From Lophium mytilinum (Eukaryota > Ascomycota > Dothideomycetes > Mytilinidiales > Mytilinidiaceae): a stretch of DNA of 64,000 bases. The notes under the pieces were generated by a model. That model made no database searches. It worked only from the letters and a program-made list of their open reading frames with translations, and was not told the DNA's origin. The translations under genes and the position numbers were made by a program. The stretch lies in the NCBI GenBank assembly GCA_010093605.1, contig MU004183.1:868001-932000 (forward strand), read 5' to 3'. Below, in pieces: positions 3,579 through 26,205 of this stretch (the first letter of the stretch is position 1; every line of letters starts with the position of its first letter).

Positions 3579-4629
3579 TTACCCTTCCCCTTTGAGTATT
3601 TCCGGTAACTCATCATCTTTGAAGCTGTCCCAGATACTCTTCTCCTTAGCCTCCCATCCTAATTCCCTCAGTCTTACTGCTCGGCTACGAGAGTTCAAAC
3701 CAAATACATTCCCGGTCGCCTCGCCCTGCGTTCGTCAGAAACCCCTCATATACAGAGTTAGAATAGAAGAGGACAAAACATACCCATAACTCTCCATAAT
3801 CCTCCTTCCCAAAAGTTCTTGGCGTCTTATCCTTAATCAACCCCTTCTCATACAGCGCCTCTCCGATATGCTCCGCAACCTCCTTCCAGCTGAACTCACT
3901 GCCATTTTCACAGAAGAAGTACGGGTTCGCAAGAAACTCCTTGCTCGGCGTAGTTTCCAGGTGACGCAAAAGGATCACGTACGCTCGTGCTAGATCCCTG
4001 ACATGGACCTGGGACTCAACCGCCAACCCCTTACCCACATGTCCAACCCAGCCGCGCTTTAGCGCAAGTCGCGCTATCATCGGAAGCTGAACCGTCAACC
4101 TCTTAACCGCAGGATTGAACCCATAGATCTCCGGCGGAATAATAATGACTATTTTCGCATCCTCCCCAATCTCTTTAGCCGCCTTCACAATCAGGGAATC
4201 TACATCCCGGTGCGCCGCGGTATCGGGCAGCGCATCGATCTCCTCAGGCTTGTTGTCGTAGTAGATCTTGTCGCCTTTCCAATCGCCCCACGCGCCGTCG
4301 TCGAGCGCGCCGGTCCCGCTCGTGTGGATGAAGATGGTCTTCTTGCCCTCGGCTTTCCGCTGCTTGATGCCGGCGATGATGGCTTCGGCCAGAGGGACGT
4401 GGTCACAGCTTGCGGTGTTGATCGTGATGTCGCTTTTTGCGGTGTGTTCTTTGATCAAGTCGTGATCTTCAAGGTTGCCGATGATGGTGATGGCGCCGGA
4501 TTTCTCGATTTGCTTTGCATGCGCTTCACGGCGGACTAGGGCGGATATCGGGTAGCCTTCTGGGATGAGGAGCTCGAGGACGTTCCACCCGACGAAGCCA
4601 GGGCCGATTATGAAGATTGATTGAGGCAT
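3579..4629 (-). CDS. NAD(P)-binding epimerase-like protein (atypical SDR)
   Basis: Predicted 330-aa protein. It reads from the ATG at 4629; the second exon starts at 3725 after an intron at 3726-3783 (GTATGT donor, CTAAC branch, GCAG acceptor) and ends with TAA at 3579-3581. The N-terminus SIFIIGPGFVGWNVLELL is a GxGxxG dinucleotide loop. Downstream are HTSGTGAL, an IIPPEIYG segment and VHVRDLARAYVILL, as in nucleoside-diphosphate-sugar-epimerase/NmrA-like SDRs. The spliced C-terminus continues NVFGLNSRSRAVRLRELGW, which fits the family and supports the intron. No canonical YxxxK is seen, so it may be a redox-sensing or atypical member rather than a standard dehydrogenase. It lies tail-to-tail with the SDR reductase. 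Function beyond nucleotide binding is unknown. Confidence 0.85.
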
Positions 4630-18559: not shown

Positions 18560-19957
18560 TTATGTCTTCCTTCCCGCTCCTTTGGACTTGACTCTACTCC
18601 TCGTCGACCGTGCAGGTGTGTCTGCGTCTTTCATCACGTCCGCATCTGATGATTCGCGGCTGCTCTCGTTGTTGTCATCCGCATCGGCCTCCGTGGCGGC
18701 GACACTCTCTCCCTTCTCCTCCCTCTCGAGCTGCTTCTCCATTTCGCTCGGTTCTTTAATGCCCCGCTCCCTCTGCCACCCCTCTACTAAAGCTCCTACC
18801 TCCTCTCTCTTCTCCCGACCATTCCATGCTCGACACCCCGCGCATCTCCACCTCCCCACATCCTCCAGAGTACGCGTACCAGGTGGCGCCTGCCCATTAA
18901 CCAACCGACATTCGCTGCAAATCAGCGCCAGTCGGTTCTTGGGCTGCGTCTCGTCTTCGCCTAGCAGCACGTCTAGGATGCGGTCGTACCATCTCGACTG
19001 TGTAAAGGATGACGCGGAAGTGGCGGTGTATTGCCTCGCTAATTCGGGAGGGGCGAACGCATTGGGCGCAAACTCCGCACCTGGCATATCTTTCGGCGGG
19101 GGAGGCGGTGGCATGTCGTCGGATCTAGAGCTAGCTGGGCGAAGAGAGGCCGAAGAGCCGTGGTGGCGAAGAGAGGCTGAAGAGCCGGGTCGTGAAGGCG
19201 TCGAAGGGAGCGAGACTCCCGGACGTGGGATGTTGGCTGTAGGCGGGGGCGGCATATTTGTGCGCTGACCCTGCTTCTGCGGGCCTTCAGACTTCCGCCG
19301 GGAGGATGGAGCGTTGGAAGGGCCTTTCTCGGGTTTAGGTGGCGGCGAGCCATATTTCTCGAGGAGCTGCTGAGTGGAGTTGTATTTCGTTGCTTGCTTG
19401 AGACGCTCGATGGTGGCGTCGCGCTCTTTGTAGAGCGAGTTGAGGTAGAGTTGGGTGTTGGAGATGCGGTAGTCGTAGTAGGTTGTTAAGGAGGTTCGGA
19501 CGAGATATACCCTAATGATATCCAAAACGTATTCAGCTGGCTATCCGATTTGTAGGGTAGTAACAGGTGTAGGAGACAGAGGACAACGCTTACACTACAG
19601 GCCCTCCTGCCATGACCGAGTATTCCACGGTTCCCCAGCTTCGCCATCCCGTCACGAGTGTCAGAATCAGAGCAGTGAGTATATAGGCGAAACCAGCGTA
19701 TAACGTCCACATGACGCGCACACGCCGCGCACGCTGGCGGAGCGAGTCATTTCTGGCGGCAATCTTGGTGATCTTGATGGAGAGGGTGGAGAGAGTCTTT
19801 TCGAAGGAGGCAGCGGAGTTGTTGTCGCCCTATGACATCGTCAGCATCCAGCAGCTCATGAACACACAGTTCGCATAAGAAACCCAGCAGCATGCGGGCA
19901 GCAACAACACGGACATGAAGTGAGAATACATACCTTCCAAGGCCACAGATTTACCAT
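18560..19957 (-). CDS. LNP1: Lunapark, ER three-way-junction protein
   Basis: Predicted 403 aa from three exons: 19934-19957 (MVNLWPWK), 19594-19829 and 18560-19511, with introns at 19830-19933 and 19512-19593. Lunapark stabilises ER three-way tubule junctions. The family pattern is complete: a short N-terminus, TM1 at about 48-68 (VMWTLYAGFAYILTALILTL), TM2 at about 78-95 spanning the second splice, and the signature RTSLTTYYDYRI. A coiled-coil follows (SLYKERDATIERLKQATKY), then a Pro/Ser-rich linker and the zinc ribbon with C285-x2-C288 and C310-x2-C313 (LICSECRLVNG, WRCAGCRAWNG). The C-terminal tail is acidic then basic. Its start codon lies 114 bp from the edge of the RIP-degraded element, which therefore sits in its promoter. 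Confidence 0.93.
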
Positions 19958-20071
19958 GATGTCTCTGGTGAAGGATCACAGCCCTCCCGGGTCGCAGGAA
20001 GAAGTATACGTAGTCACTTTCGCATCGTGGGCGTGGTCTTCAGCCTCCACGTCGAAGTTGACGTCCGCAGT

Positions 20072-20271
20072 GATTTGTCGTATTCAAAACAGAGTACATT
20101 CCTTGGCGTTTTTCTCCGTGCACCCCCCCTAATTTTATATAAGCGCGCCTGGGATTATAGATAGGTTATACCTTAATTTTTAACTACTTTTTAATATACC
20201 TACTTTAATTATTAGTAAGGCCTCTTATATATATATTAGAGCTTATATACTAATAATTTTTAGTATTTCTA
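20072..20271 (+). repeat. Left terminal inverted repeat
   Basis: About 200 bp matching the reverse complement of 25418-25615, with scattered differences. It begins GATTTGTCGTATTCAAAAC and ends in RIP-type AT-rich sequence around CTAATAATTT. The outer 70 bp retain CpA and TpG; the inner part does not. Confidence 0.87.
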
Positions 20272-22549
20272 GTATAAGTTAATAACTTTATCTATAGTTA
20301 AATCCTTCTCTCTACTAGCGCGTAAACCTAACTCTAGAATTAAACCCTAATATTAGCCTTATAGCGCCTAGATATTATATAGCTTCTCTAGCTTAATAAG
20401 TACTTTAAATAGATTACTAAGGTTATTTATATCTACTAGAAAATAGTATATAATATAGAAAAATATATAATTCTTTATAGCGCGCCTATAAGGCCTCTAT
20501 AAATTAAGATAGAATAGCTAAAAAGGCTTATTATAGTAGATAAAAAGGTAGTACTCTAATAGCTTCTAGAAGATAGCTAGTATAATTAAGATAAAATTTA
20601 AATATAGCTTAATCTTAAGTATAGTATTAGAGCTTTATAGCTAACTATATTATATATAATAAAGAGAAATAAATAGAATAAGAAGTAGGCCTAGCGCTAG
20701 TTAAACTATATAAGTAAGAAGTTAAGGTTAAAGTACTTAGAGCTTACTAGTTACTATAAGCTAGAAGATCTTATTTTTCTTAATAAGTCTATCTTTAATA
20801 AAAAGACTAGCTAGTACTATTATATATATATATCTATTAGAAGTTCTACGCGCTACTAGGGGCCTATAAATTATAGAAATATATAGAGTATATATATAGT
20901 AATAAGTATAGTAGAGTAGCTACTATATATAGCTATATAAGAGGGCTACTTTAATACTAAGAAGTTTTAAAGCTAGATTATTACTACTTTTATACTAGCT
21001 ATAGAAGGTAAGTTTAAGAGCCGCTTAAAGGTTATTATTCTAGATAATATTAAAATATATACTAAGAAAGCTCTTATATATATAATCTAGGCGTAAGAAT
21101 ATCTAGTATATTTTCTACTACTATACTTACTAGATTTTAACTCTATAAAGTTAACCTTTACTATACTAAAGATATAGATCCATAGGCATTACTATTACCT
21201 ACACCTAGCCTATTATAACTTTAGTAACTTTCTAAGGGCTACTATTAAGTAGAGCTAGTATAATTACTTTACTTAAAAGTAGTTCTATTATATAGCTAGA
21301 GAAGTATACTATATAAGAAAAAAGATAGATAGAATTTAAACTAAGCTAAATATATATAAGAGAGGTAATACTAATACTTAAATTAAAAAGAAGTAGATAA
21401 AGAAGTAGATTAAAACCTAAGTATATACTATATATAGCCTTTCTATTTAATATATACTCTATATATAGCCTTACTATTTTTTATATACTCTCTAGACTAA
21501 AACTTAAGTATTAGCGCTAGTAGATAATCTAAGGCTTAAGTATTAGCGCTAGCAGATAATCTATAGCTTATATATTAGTATAGAGTAAAGTTATATAGTA
21601 AAGCTTAATAGCTATTATTTATTTTTCTATATATTCTTACCTCTTTTTTAACTCTCTTTTTTCTTTAGACTCTATATACTATTAATTACTACCTTTATAA
21701 TACTATAGCTAATAATACTATAGCTAATAATACTAGTAATTAGAGCTCTATTAATAGCCTAATTAATAATATTCTTATAGAGCCCTTCTTCTCTTTACCT
21801 CTTACTATGTACCCCTTTAGGCTTCTTAGAGTTTACCTAGATTCTCTAGTAATATAGGTAGTAGTAGCTAGGCCGCTTCTTACTAAGAAGAAGATAATAG
21901 GCGTTTAAGCTAAAGATAAGGCGCTAGAAGCTTTCTCTAGTAAGAGCCTAGAGAATTCTAGCCCTTAAAGGCTTTATATAGTGCGTAGTAGGCCTATATA
22001 TCTTCTTTCTACTCTTACTATTAGTAGAGATATCTATAATATACCTAATTAGAAGAAGAATAAGAATAAGAAAAAAGAAAAGAGAACTAATCCCTCTCTA
22101 CTATATATAATTTCTAGTATAGTAGCTTAAGAATCTAGCTAACCTATTTATATAGAAAGCGCTGCACTTACTATCTACTCTCTCCCCTTACTATTACTAT
22201 TATTCTAGGCCTGCTAACTCCCTCTTAGTATACTAATAACCTTACTACCGCCCTTAGCTTCTCTACTATTACTATAGCCCTCTAAGAGCACTTCTACTGC
22301 GCTAAGCTCGCCTATATAGAGCTTATTAATAGCTAATATAGCTAGAATTAGATAGGCCTAGCCTATAGTATATATCTAGAGTGCGCCTAGAATATACCTA
22401 CTAGAGGCTATTATTAGTATAATATTAATTTCTATACTAATAATAATCTAGGTAGTAAATATAGTATATATAGGGTTAGAAGTAAGCGCTATACTTAGAT
22501 TAATACTGCGGGAGATATAGTAGTATTTAAGTAGGCTCTAAAGCCTAGG

Positions 22550-23077
22550 GCTAGTTATGCTAGAAGAAAAAAGTAGAGAATTAAGTCTATTTAACTATAT
22601 ACTTAGAAACTATAACTATAACTTTAAAAGTTTATTACTACTAATTAATATTTCTATATATTTAGCATGCGGATATAAATATATATATCTAAACGCGTAA
22701 TTTAGCTATCTATTTATATAATTTAAACTTATATTTACTAAGATATAATAAAGTAATATATTTTATTTCTATATAGCCTTTCTATTTTATATATACTCTA
22801 TATAGTATNNNNNNNNNNGCTAGTTATACTAGAAGAAAAAAGTAGAGAATTAAGCCTATTTAACTATATACTTAGAAACTATAACTATAACTTTAAAAGT
22901 TTATTACTACTAATTAATATTTCTATATATTTAGCATGCGGATATAAATATATATATCTAAACGCGTAATTTAGCTATCTATTTATATAATTTAAACTTA
23001 TATTTACTAAGATATAATAAAGTAATATATTTTATTTCTATATAGCCTTTCTATTTTATATATACTCTATATAGTAT
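22550..23077. other. Assembly gap (10 N at 22809-22818) flanked by a 259-bp near-identical duplication
   Basis: The 259 bases up to the gap (22550-22808) and the 259 bases right after it (22819-23077) have the same start (GCTAGTTAT), the same end (ATATAGTAT) and the same length, with two single-base differences by my reading. The repeat abuts the gap exactly on both sides, as expected if two contig ends overlap but were not merged. Confidence 0.9.
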
Positions 23078-23084
23078 CTAACTT

Positions 23085-23345
23085 AAGGCTTAAGTATTAG
23101 TAGTAAGAATCTTATTTTAATATTTTATAGCTTAAGTATTAGTAGTAAGAATCTTATTTTAATATTTTAAGGCTTAAATATTAGCGTAGGGTAAATTTCC
23201 TCTACGCTAATACTTAAGCCTTAAAATAGAATTCTTACTACTAATACTTAAGCTATAAAATATTAAAATAGAATCCTTACTACTAATACTTAAGCTATAA
23301 GATATTAAGATATATTTTTATATTTTACCTATACTAATACTTAAG
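23085..23345. repeat. Inverted-repeat array inside the RIP-degraded element
   Basis: The motif GGCTTAAGTATTAG (or GCTTAAGTATTAG) occurs repeatedly on the left side and its reverse complement CTAATACTTAAGC repeatedly on the right, around a centre near 23190-23205 where GCGTAGGG faces CTACGC. Spacing between motif copies is about 40-45 bp. Further forward copies lie at about 21500-21580. Confidence 0.75.
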
Positions 23346-25417
23346 CCTTAAACTATAAATACTCTCTAATTAATAAATAGTATATATATTATAGGTAGTA
23401 TATATTAGATAGATAGTATATATTTATTACTACGCGCTCTACCCCCTATTATCTAGTAGAGTAAGATTAAACGCCGCTTTATTTTTCTAGTATAGCTACT
23501 TAAATCTATATAGCTTCTTAGTAAACTTTATAGCTATTCTATTTAATATTTCTAGCTATATAGTTTTATAATATGCCTTTAAGCTTCTATTTATTATCTA
23601 ATAGAGAAAATCTATATTTTAAGCCTAATTTATTACTACCTAGGCCGCCTACTACTAGTGCTAGTATAAACTAGCGTTTTATATACTATTAACTTTCTAA
23701 TAAAAAAATACCTCTAGTATATCTATATTCTCCTCTTTAGAGTATACTAGGCTTAAGCTCTTTAGTTAGTAAAGTTCTATAGTAGCCGGGGTATAAGTTA
23801 AGAGCGCTAGTAGTAGAGAAGAAGAAAGAGAAGGTATAAATATAGGCGTAGGTGCCGGCGCATATAGAAATACTAGATACCTAGTAGAAATATATAGATT
23901 TAGTAGATAATAAAGTAGTAGAAAAGAGAGAGAATAGTAGCTATACTACTACTATTAAGGCTATAACTAAGGCTATAACTAAGACTATAATAGAGGCTAC
24001 TATATACTTAAAAATCTCTTAGCTATAGCTATTATCTATTATATACTACTAAACTCTATAGTCTACTTTATTATTACCTTAATATTATCTATAGTACTTA
24101 CTATCTACTATACTTTTATTATCTTTACTAGCTAATAATATTCTAAATCTATAGGTCTATTTATTTAAAGCTTCTTTAATAATTTAATTAGAGGCACTAA
24201 TATAGTAGCCTTACTATATACTATAGTATTAGCCTATACCTTCTACTACTTAGTAAGTATAATAAAGTGCTTACTACTATTAAGAAAGTAGTAGCTATTA
24301 AAGTTACTATACTCTTTATTAGTATACTTCTAATACTATATTAGGTCTATATTATAGTCTCTTATATTAGTAATTCTACTTATTATAGCTTTATACTACT
24401 ATAGCAGCTTCCTACTATAACTCTTAGGCGTAGCTATAGCTAGTAAGAACTTAGGCGTAATTAACTTTCTAGATAGATTAGATAGAACTTTATATATAAA
24501 TAGAAGCGCTATAGTATTCTTTTAGAAGACTATTTACTTTATATTAAGGGCTATAAATAATCTATTAAAAGAGAATATAGAGAAGTTATCTATATTATAT
24601 ATTTATATACCGCCTTTACTATTTAAAGTATATAGTACTATAGTATAGAAAGTAATAATATACTCTATCTAGTAGTTACTATTAGCCTGCACCTTTATAA
24701 CTAGCTTATTAAGTTCTAGCTTAATATTATTACTAGAGAGGCTAAACTATATTTTTATATCTACTATCTTACTACCCGCCTTCTTCTTATTAATAAATAG
24801 CTAGAATAATAGATTAATATTATAGTCTAGAGAACTAGTAGATATTAGTAGTAATATTAATACTATATACTTATAGCGCGCTAGAGTACTAAAAGTAGAA
24901 GAGAATATAAAGAGTAGTACTCTACCTCTATTTAGTAGTAATAATAGTAGTAGGCCTAGTATAGAGTTATAACTATTTTAAATCTTTTTATTTTATACTA
25001 CTTCTTCTTACTACTATACTATCTTCTTTTACTATTACGCTACCTCCTCTTATACCGCGCGCTATCTATCTATTACTATAGCCTTACGCGTAGCCTTTTT
25101 AGCTACTTAAGCCTTATACTATAGTCTATTCTTTCTTTCTCTTACTATTTTAGCTAAAAGATTTATATCTAGTCTTATAGTAGCTTTAATAGTAGCTTAG
25201 CTATTATTAAAGTATATATACTTCTCTCTCTATTTAGTAGTCTATATATTCTCTAGTATAACTCTAAGTAATTCTATAAAAGTATCTACTTCTTCTCTTT
25301 CTTCTCTTTTTTCTCTTCCTCCTCTTTCTCTACCTTCTCTAGCCGCCGGCGGGTCTCTAGAGCGTTAGGTATTATTATTAAAAGTTATACTATATTAAGA
25401 ATATTATAGTAGTACTA

Positions 25418-25615
25418 GAATACTAGAAATTATTAGTATATAAGCTTTAATATATATATAAGAGGCCTTACTAGTAGCTAATATAGATATATTAAAAAGT
25501 AGTTAAAAATTAATATATAACCTATCTAATAATCCTAGGCGCGCGCTTATAAAATTAGGGGGGGTGCACAGAGAAAAACGCTAAGGAATGTACTCCGTTT
25601 TGAATACGACAAATC
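25418..25615 (-). repeat. Right terminal inverted repeat
   Basis: Counterpart of the left repeat, in opposite orientation, ending GAATACGACAAATC at 25615. Immediately outside is ordinary host sequence that leads in 112 bp to the MZM1 start codon. Confidence 0.87.
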
Positions 25616-25727
25616 GGCGCCGGGAAGCCCCGTGCACCCAGCCCCTGTCACTTCCCGACGTTTCTTTGCACGAGCTCGCTCTGTGAACACCTCACTCCTT
25701 CACCATCGCCGCTCCATACAGAGCCCA

Positions 25728-26205
25728 ATGTCCCGCGAAATGGCATTGCAAGCATACAGACACCTCCTGCGTTCCACGCGCATCGCCTTCCAAGGTCCGT
25801 AGTGCCCTGATGCCACCTTTATCCCGGTATTAAGAGCTCACATGCTATGCAGGGGACATCAATACACTCAGCGCAGCGCGATTCGAGGCGCGGAGACAGT
25901 TTGATTCGAACCGCAGCATCTCGTCCGGAAGTGAGGATGCGGTGGGCAAGATAGCGCAGGCGCAGGAAATCGCGAAATTCCTTCGGGAGAACGTGGTGCA
26001 GGGCGAGAAGACCGATGCCGAGGCGGAGAACTACAGTATGTCGAGACAGCGTTACAATTATTATTGATGATATTCTGGGGAAAGGATTCTAATTGAGGTT
26101 CTAGAGCTGCGGATACACGAGCACACGGAGAGAGGCAATAACGACGACATCAAGACGGCAGGGAAAGGAAACACATTAGCAGGAGTGAAATGCTGTCAAT
26201 CATAA
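25728..26205 (+). CDS. MZM1: MZM1-like LYR-motif mitochondrial protein
   Basis: Predicted 116 aa from three exons: 25728-25794, 25853-26035, 26105-26205. The introns are 58 and 69 nt; the last acceptor is the TAG at 26102-26104, the only one giving the conserved AENYKLRIHEHTE. Mzm1 is a LYR-family chaperone in the mitochondrial matrix that stabilises the Rieske iron-sulphur protein Rip1 before insertion into complex III; loss perturbs mitochondrial zinc. The LYR-like tripeptide AYR with the following basic helix (RHLLRSTRIAF) is at residues 9-21, and a helical region carrying FLRENVVQGEKTD follows. Length matches the family. It was originally head-to-head with Lunapark; the RIP-degraded element now ends 112 bp upstream of its ATG. 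Confidence 0.9.

What the first reader, a model, noticed from the sequence alone, without database searches (positions are those of the whole stretch)
19957..25728. A dead, RIP-hit transposable element splits a bidirectional housekeeping promoter
Lunapark (minus, ATG at 19957) and MZM1 (plus, ATG at 25728) face away from each other. Subtracting the TIR-bounded island (20072-25615) leaves about 230 bp between the two starts, so a compact shared promoter was split by a 5.5 kb element that is now extremely AT-rich. RIP-degraded DNA in fungi usually carries H3K9me3/heterochromatin, yet both neighbours look intact and are important genes. How each keeps expression with only about 115 bp of unaltered upstream sequence is a real question.
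Basis: partly seen in the sequence, partly recalled or inferred. Interest (0 to 1): 0.75.

Follow-up and report, generated by a model that had tools for sequence, protein, structure and literature searches.

The report
Mutated transposon between two divergent genes
A fungal jumping gene of an unusual kind, which lands at the two letters AT, sits in the roughly 230-letter gap between two genes; what looks like the fungus's own defence has mutated its inside beyond use but has largely spared its outer ends and the neighbouring gene starts.

Summary
Window 20073-25614 is a full-length, RIP-degraded copy of a dispersed TIR transposon (8 loci with both ends found in this 43-Mb fungal genome). It lies between intact Lunapark and MZM1-like genes, each found at one locus. 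Removing it leaves about 230 bp between the ATGs. About 269 bp of the apparent length is a scaffold-gap duplicate; true size is about 5.27 kb. RIP is extreme inside (27 CA+TG against 421 AC+GT), absent from the 115/113-bp flanks, and weak in the outer ~60-80 bp of the TIRs (16 of 16 ends). Each gene thus keeps roughly 160-195 bp of un-RIPped upstream DNA. The shared-promoter claim remains inference: no relatives, TSS or chromatin data were available.

Unexpected: the family does not use the TA target of Tc1/mariner elements. 23 of 24 scored insertions have AT at both ends, one paralogous empty site has a single AT, and one short relative has CT/CT. Full-size members carry a DDE_3 (IS630/Tc1-mariner-type) transposase remnant 673-702 bp inside the end. 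This resembles the AT-specific ATon elements of Aedes, whose transposase was reported unknown, and offers a candidate enzyme type.

The parts
18560..19957 (-). Lunapark gene (start codon A at 19957, stop codon ending at 18560; introns not all modelled)
   Evidence: PF10058 E=1e-21; frames read; stop position; only PF10058 match in the genome
19958..20072 (.). 115-bp un-RIPped flank between the Lunapark ATG and the element
   Evidence: CA o/e 1.35, composite RIP index -0.08; length
20073..20074 (.). left AT (inferred 2-bp target duplication)
20073..20267 (+). left TIR (about 200 bp); outer ~78 bp largely un-RIPped, rest saturated
20770..21200 (+). degraded DDE_3 transposase domain with many in-frame stops (approximate coordinates, transferred from the C4 copy)
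   Evidence: C4 copy, E=2.4e-5, below curated cut-off; related element L026, 37.1 bits; copy C11, 34.4 bits; window frame read
21585..22667 (.). tract with one difference from the copy on contig C4, flanked by 4.4% (left) and about 7% (right) divergence: post-RIP gene conversion or assembly artefact
22809..22818 (.). N gap; 22550-22808 repeats 22819-23077 with 2 differences: unmerged contig overlap
25419..25614 (-). right TIR, ending in AT at 25613-25614
25615..25727 (.). 113-bp un-RIPped flank upstream of the MZM1-like gene
   Evidence: CA o/e 1.35, composite RIP index -0.73; length
25728..26205 (+). MZM1-like LYR protein gene, 116 aa, three exons (25728-25794, 25853-26035, 26105-26205)
   Evidence: spliced frame intact to the stop; LYR Pfam matches below cut-off; one locus

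Best explanation
The island is a RIP-killed copy of an AT-targeting TIR transposon with an IS630/Tc1-mariner-type (DDE_3) transposase. It inserted at an AT dinucleotide in the ~230-bp space between the divergent Lunapark and MZM1-like genes, duplicating AT. RIP then converted nearly all CpA/TpG sites of the repeated interior to TpA. It largely spared the outermost ~60-80 bp of each end and did not enter the unique flanks. Each gene therefore keeps its own 113-115 bp plus about 50-80 bp of un-RIPped TIR. Shown: multi-copy element, common ends, RIP pattern, spared ends, intact genes at one locus each. Supported but not proved: AT target duplication and own DDE_3 transposase. Inferred: the 230 bp held the core promoters of both genes, and these now lie in the native flanks.
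For: 8 loci with the same two ends. RIP statistics. Edge sparing over 16 ends, against an un-RIPped relative: within 80 bp, of 176 cells 87 kept the site, 26 became TA and 63 were otherwise; at 81-203 bp, of 192 cells 5 kept it, 185 became TA and 2 were otherwise. Every one of the 16 ends keeps 4-7 CA/TG in its first 60 bp and 0-3 at 86-203 bp. AT on both sides of 23 of 24 scored insertions. The paralogous empty site C6:1240790-1241003 has one AT where the C6 copy has two. The short relative L020 has CT on both sides as a direct repeat. DDE_3 lies 673-675 bp from an ATTTGTCG end and reads inward in L036, L040 and L047, about 673 bp in L026 and about 702 bp in the window's subfamily. Genes intact, one locus each.
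Against: No empty site for this locus in a relative. The island contains a scaffold gap, so adjacency across it rests on a 259-bp overlap. The C6 empty-site alignment (71% identity) has gaps of 12 and 8 bp close to the junction and is one case. AT is palindromic, so the AT/AT copies cannot separate duplication from a terminal AT; L070 has AT/AA. The CT/CT match has a 1 in 16 chance. 16 of the 24 scored insertions were found with a pattern beginning ATTT and are biased towards AT. 9 of 12 fetched DDE_3 loci show no such end within the 1.5 kb held on each side; one of these (L044) lies in a family copy whose end is displaced. So the domain is not exclusive to this family. No solved-structure match to the degraded transposase profile. 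The outer 80 bp also shows some RIP (26 of 113 kept-or-TA cells). Three un-RIPped short relatives are themselves poor in CA/TG at 120-200 bp, so native composition may add to the contrast in other subfamilies.
Confidence: 0.75

Rival explanations
1. The two genes were not neighbours before: recombination between element copies, or a wrong scaffold join at the N gap, placed them on either side of the element, so no promoter was split.
For: N gap inside the element. A 1.08-kb tract nearly identical to the C4 copy shows exchange or mis-assembly between copies.
Against: The contig overlap differs at 2 of 259 positions, against 4.6-6.3% from three other copies, and the C4-like tract is bounded on both sides by divergent sequence. 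AT at both junctions is uninformative because nearly all copies have it.
Confidence: 0.15
2. The element has no target duplication and simply ends in AT, or inserts between A and T as Helitrons do; the DDE_3 gene is a passenger.
For: AT is palindromic, so the two readings look alike at AT/AT copies. Aedes ATons were compared with Helitrons for this reason (PMC3422177, section 10). Most fetched DDE_3 loci in this genome are not seen with such ends.
Against: Long TIRs. No Helitron domain in six read-through frames of the degraded C4 copy. The C6 paralogous empty site keeps one AT, which speaks against a purely terminal AT there but not against insertion between A and T. CT/CT direct repeat at L020. 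DDE_3 at a nearly fixed distance from the end in several subfamilies.
Confidence: 0.2
3. The spared outer 60-80 bp reflects selection, bound protein or local sequence (for example promoter use by the neighbours) rather than a positional RIP edge effect.
For: The fall is steep and at about the same place at 16 of 16 ends: sites at 25 and 49 bp are kept in 16 of 16, at 64 and 78 bp in 6 and 9 of 16, beyond 98 bp in 0-3 of 16.
Against: It is the same at 8 loci whatever the neighbours, so gene-specific selection at this locus is not needed. The other-subfamily ends L026, L036, L040 and L047 also keep CA/TG in roughly their first 80-120 bp, although L036 has CA/TG again at 200-280 bp.
Confidence: 0.15

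Closest known systems
ATon elements of Aedes aegypti (PMC3422177; abstract, passages, sections 5 and 10 read)
   Same: TIR elements found specifically at AT, with related empty sites carrying AT; many short non-autonomous copies
   Different: In Aedes no autonomous partner or transposase was found; here full-size relatives with a DDE_3 transposase remnant share the ends. Common descent was not tested.
IS630/Tc1-mariner superfamily transposons
   Same: DDE_3 domain; 34 residues between the second and third catalytic positions in alignment A2; TIRs; 2-bp target duplication inferred
   Different: Target is AT, not TA; about 5.25 kb with ~200-bp TIRs; the rest of the element gives no convincing Pfam match
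RIP-degraded transposon relics of filamentous ascomycetes (recalled)
   Same: CpA/TpG turned to TpA, AT-rich islands with sharp borders
   Different: Spared ends of about 60-80 bp measured at 16 of 16 ends; insertion within a very short divergent intergenic space

Membership tests
RIP-mutated repeat | Multi-copy DNA with CpA/TpG depletion and TpA excess | tested here: met
RIP-mutated repeat | RIP machinery and sexual cycle in the host | not tested
   Inferred from the mutation pattern only
IS630/Tc1-mariner superfamily | DDE_3-type transposase inside the element | tested here: met
   C4 copy 24.7 bits (below cut-off 28.6); C11 copy 34.4 bits and related L026 37.1 bits, both above
IS630/Tc1-mariner superfamily | TA target duplication | tested here: not met
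   AT, not TA, at both ends of 23 of 24 insertions; the other is AT/AA
ATon | TIR element inserting at AT, with AT at the empty site | tested here: met
   one paralogous empty site only
ATon | Sequence kinship with Aedes ATons | not tested
   Aedes sequences were not compared
Helitron | Rep/helicase protein, no TIRs, no target duplication | tested here: not met
   Long TIRs; no such Pfam domain in six frames of one degraded copy
Split bidirectional promoter | Both genes transcribed from one shared region in the empty allele | not testable with these tools
   No relatives, TSS or expression data held

The most novel reading that the evidence does not exclude
An IS630/Tc1-mariner-type (DDE_3) transposase lineage in fungi that targets and duplicates AT instead of TA, with its own short non-autonomous derivatives: a candidate enzyme type for AT-inserting elements such as the Aedes ATons, whose transposase was reported unknown. 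Secondarily, transposon ends of about 60-80 bp escape RIP in a position-dependent way, buffering neighbouring genes.
Probability: 0.55. Interest if true: 0.65.

Novelty: new variant of a known kind. Interest (0 to 1): 0.5.

Why it matters
The TA target is regarded as the hallmark of the Tc1/mariner superfamily (recalled). A lineage using AT would show that target choice can change within it and would give ATon-like elements a candidate enzyme type. The locus is also a natural test of how two neighbouring genes work beside a RIP-killed island: the measured spared ends and un-RIPped flanks define how much promoter DNA remains.

Tried and rejected
No adjacent target duplication of 3 bp or more was found. 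60-bp left and right flanks were compared within and between 7 copies; the longest shared strings were 4-8 bp. With AT supplied at the joint, all 24 flank pairs gave exactly 2 bp; AT was assumed in that test, L070 included although its right end reads AA. Read directly, 23 of 24 are AT/AT. The scarcity of T just outside AT was noticed after looking at the flanks, so its p values are post hoc.

Pfam on forward frames of the C4 copy with stops as X gave nothing. With stops as Q/W the six frames gave DDE_3 and one weak Sas10_Utp3 match, E = 0.058. The profile of the degraded DDE region found no solved structure, and the MZM1-like protein found only one unconvincing chain at E = 0.1.

A search for the exact end sequence in papers gave 0. 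AT TSD plus transposase gave 4 papers: only passages of the truffle paper were read (it reports TA for both its elements), the other three were not read. RIP-edge searches gave 0 papers and 1 unrelated listing. A bidirectional-promoter search gave 2 papers and a heterochromatin search 364 (15 listed); none was read.

The flank gene scan of the 7 other copies used crude ORF scoring. The nearest scored ORF was 9-1730 bp away on 13 of 14 sides and 2921 bp on the other, so no claim of promoter preference is made. In alignment A1 one row (L011) was out of frame, so it was dropped for A2. The large spans at C6, C7, C11 and C17 (12.5-31.7 kb between the TIRs) are taken as nested insertions but were not dissected; L029-L035 were fetched and only checked for N runs.

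Weakness of the AT count: 16 of the 24 insertions came from a pattern beginning ATTT with up to 3 mismatches. Its listing was cut, and the control counts (252/244) exceeded the real ones (218/213), so only paired ends with 0-2 mismatches were taken, plus one 3-mismatch pair (L072). They are biased towards AT. The 8 full copies were found by DNA similarity and are not biased in this way. The paired C23 copy was not fetched.
Full report
What is there. The AT-rich island is real and has exact borders. Its TIRs are about 200 bp and 91-92% complementary. A DNA search of the window's own genome (43.18 Mb, 24 contigs) gave 26 matches, among them 8 loci with the same two ends; at four of these the ends lie 12.5-31.7 kb apart. 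Aligning 16 ends shows that similarity begins at AT (20073) and stops at AT (25614), with the next base outward variable. Three gap-free copies are 5249, 5256 and 5286 bp long. The window copy reads 5542 bp, but its N run is flanked by a 259-nt duplicate with 2 differences, so its true length is about 5.27 kb.

RIP. The interior has 27 CA+TG against 421 AC+GT and TpA/ApT of 1.80; both flanks look like normal sequence. An un-RIPped 529-bp relative (L020) served as reference for which CA/TG sites were lost. Over 16 ends, within 80 bp of the end 87 cells kept the site, 26 became TA and 63 were otherwise; at 81-203 bp 5 kept it, 185 became TA and 2 were otherwise (reference L020a; the other arm, L020b, gave 87/26/63 and 2/147/27). 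The fall is steep rather than a step: sites at 25 and 49 bp are kept at 16 of 16 ends, at 64 and 78 bp at 6 and 9 of 16, and beyond 98 bp at 0-3 of 16. Each end keeps 4-7 CA/TG in its first 60 bp and 0-3 at 86-203 bp; pooled counts agree. In the window the outer CA/TG sites reach 78 bp (left) and 49 bp (right) from the ends, with none further in within 600 bp. The un-RIPped DNA upstream of each gene is therefore about 193 bp and 162 bp, not 115 bp. All 12 fetched short relatives of 481-722 bp are not RIP-saturated. Against the simple reading: three of them profiled are also poor in CA/TG at 120-200 bp, so native composition can mimic part of the contrast; the L020 comparison is the safer test.

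Neighbours. Lunapark is supported by its zinc-ribbon domain and frames, and is the only PF10058 match. The other gene encodes an intact 116-aa protein with weak LYR matches below the Pfam cut-offs, at one locus; MZM1 is a recalled name.

What kind of element. A DDE_3 domain was found in read-through frames of the C4 copy (24.7 bits, below cut-off), and above cut-off in the related L026 and the C11 copy. Of 12 fetched DDE_3 loci (14 hits in all), three (L036, L040, L047) have an ATTTGTCG end 673-675 bp upstream of the domain, reading inward. Nine do not show one in the stretch held; of these L044 lies in the C11 copy, whose end is displaced. The second and third catalytic positions are 34 residues apart in alignment A2; two of the three catalytic positions are altered in the window copy. 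The rest of the element gave no convincing Pfam match.

Target. Tc1/mariner elements duplicate TA (recalled). Here 23 of 24 insertions have AT at both ends and one (L070) has AT/AA; 16 of the 24 came from a pattern that favours AT, the 8 full copies did not. T just outside AT is rare: 2 of 48 positions, binomial p = 0.008 against flank composition, 0.0013 against NAT in flanks (noticed post hoc). Searching the genome with 24 joined flank pairs gave one match across a junction apart from the sites themselves: a paralog 3.7 kb beyond the C6 copy reads GTA-AT-GTC where the occupied site reads CTA-AT-[element]-AT-GTC, and the join with AT scores 284 against 278 without. Gaps of 12 and 8 bp lie close to the junction, so this is useful but single evidence. 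The relative L020 has CT on both sides as a direct repeat, expected of a duplication and not of an inverted terminus, though 1 in 16 by chance.

Known relatives. The closest published case found is ATon in Aedes aegypti (PMC3422177; abstract, passages and sections 5 and 10 read): AT-specific TIR elements with no identified autonomous partner. A follow-up search listed only that paper and one unrelated one. That I saw no fungal AT-targeting Tc1-like family in print rests on the searches only, mostly listings.

History. Copies differ mainly by transitions: ts/tv 8-39 in the nine pairs of full copies and window halves with 2.7 kb or more aligned, with transversions at 0.17-0.98% per site; no date is given. 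Window 21585-22667 differs from the C4 copy at one position, while the left side differs at 67 positions in 1,512 bp (4.4%) and the right side at 10 in 141 bp (7%); the longest difference-free run is 577 columns here against 77-117 in the other eight pairs. This is either gene conversion after RIP or an assembly artefact.

Judgement. The split shared promoter is plausible but untested, and the expression puzzle is milder than stated. The AT-targeting DDE_3 family and the measured spared ends are the more informative results.

Noticed in passing
window 21585-22667: Tract with a single difference from the copy on contig C4, with 4.4% and 7% divergence on its two sides: gene conversion after RIP or assembly artefact.
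   Followed up: partly
window 22550-23077: Unmerged contig overlap around a 10-N gap inflates the island by about 269 bp.
   Followed up: yes
L062-L073, L020: Short (481-722 bp) related TIR elements that are not RIP-saturated, unlike the 5-kb copies: consistent with a length threshold for RIP.
   Followed up: partly
L018, L019 (contig C11:253911-285605): Element copy split by about 26 kb of inserted DNA; the two query pieces overlap by 9 bp, perhaps a 9-bp target duplication of a nested element.
   Followed up: no
window 25630-25639 and both TIRs: The string CCGTGCACCC occurs in the flank upstream of the MZM1-like gene and in the left TIR (CTGTGCACCC in the right TIR); possibly chance.
   Followed up: no
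L059, about 3746-4001: Paralogous copy of the C6 insertion site about 3.7 kb away, giving an empty site.
   Followed up: yes
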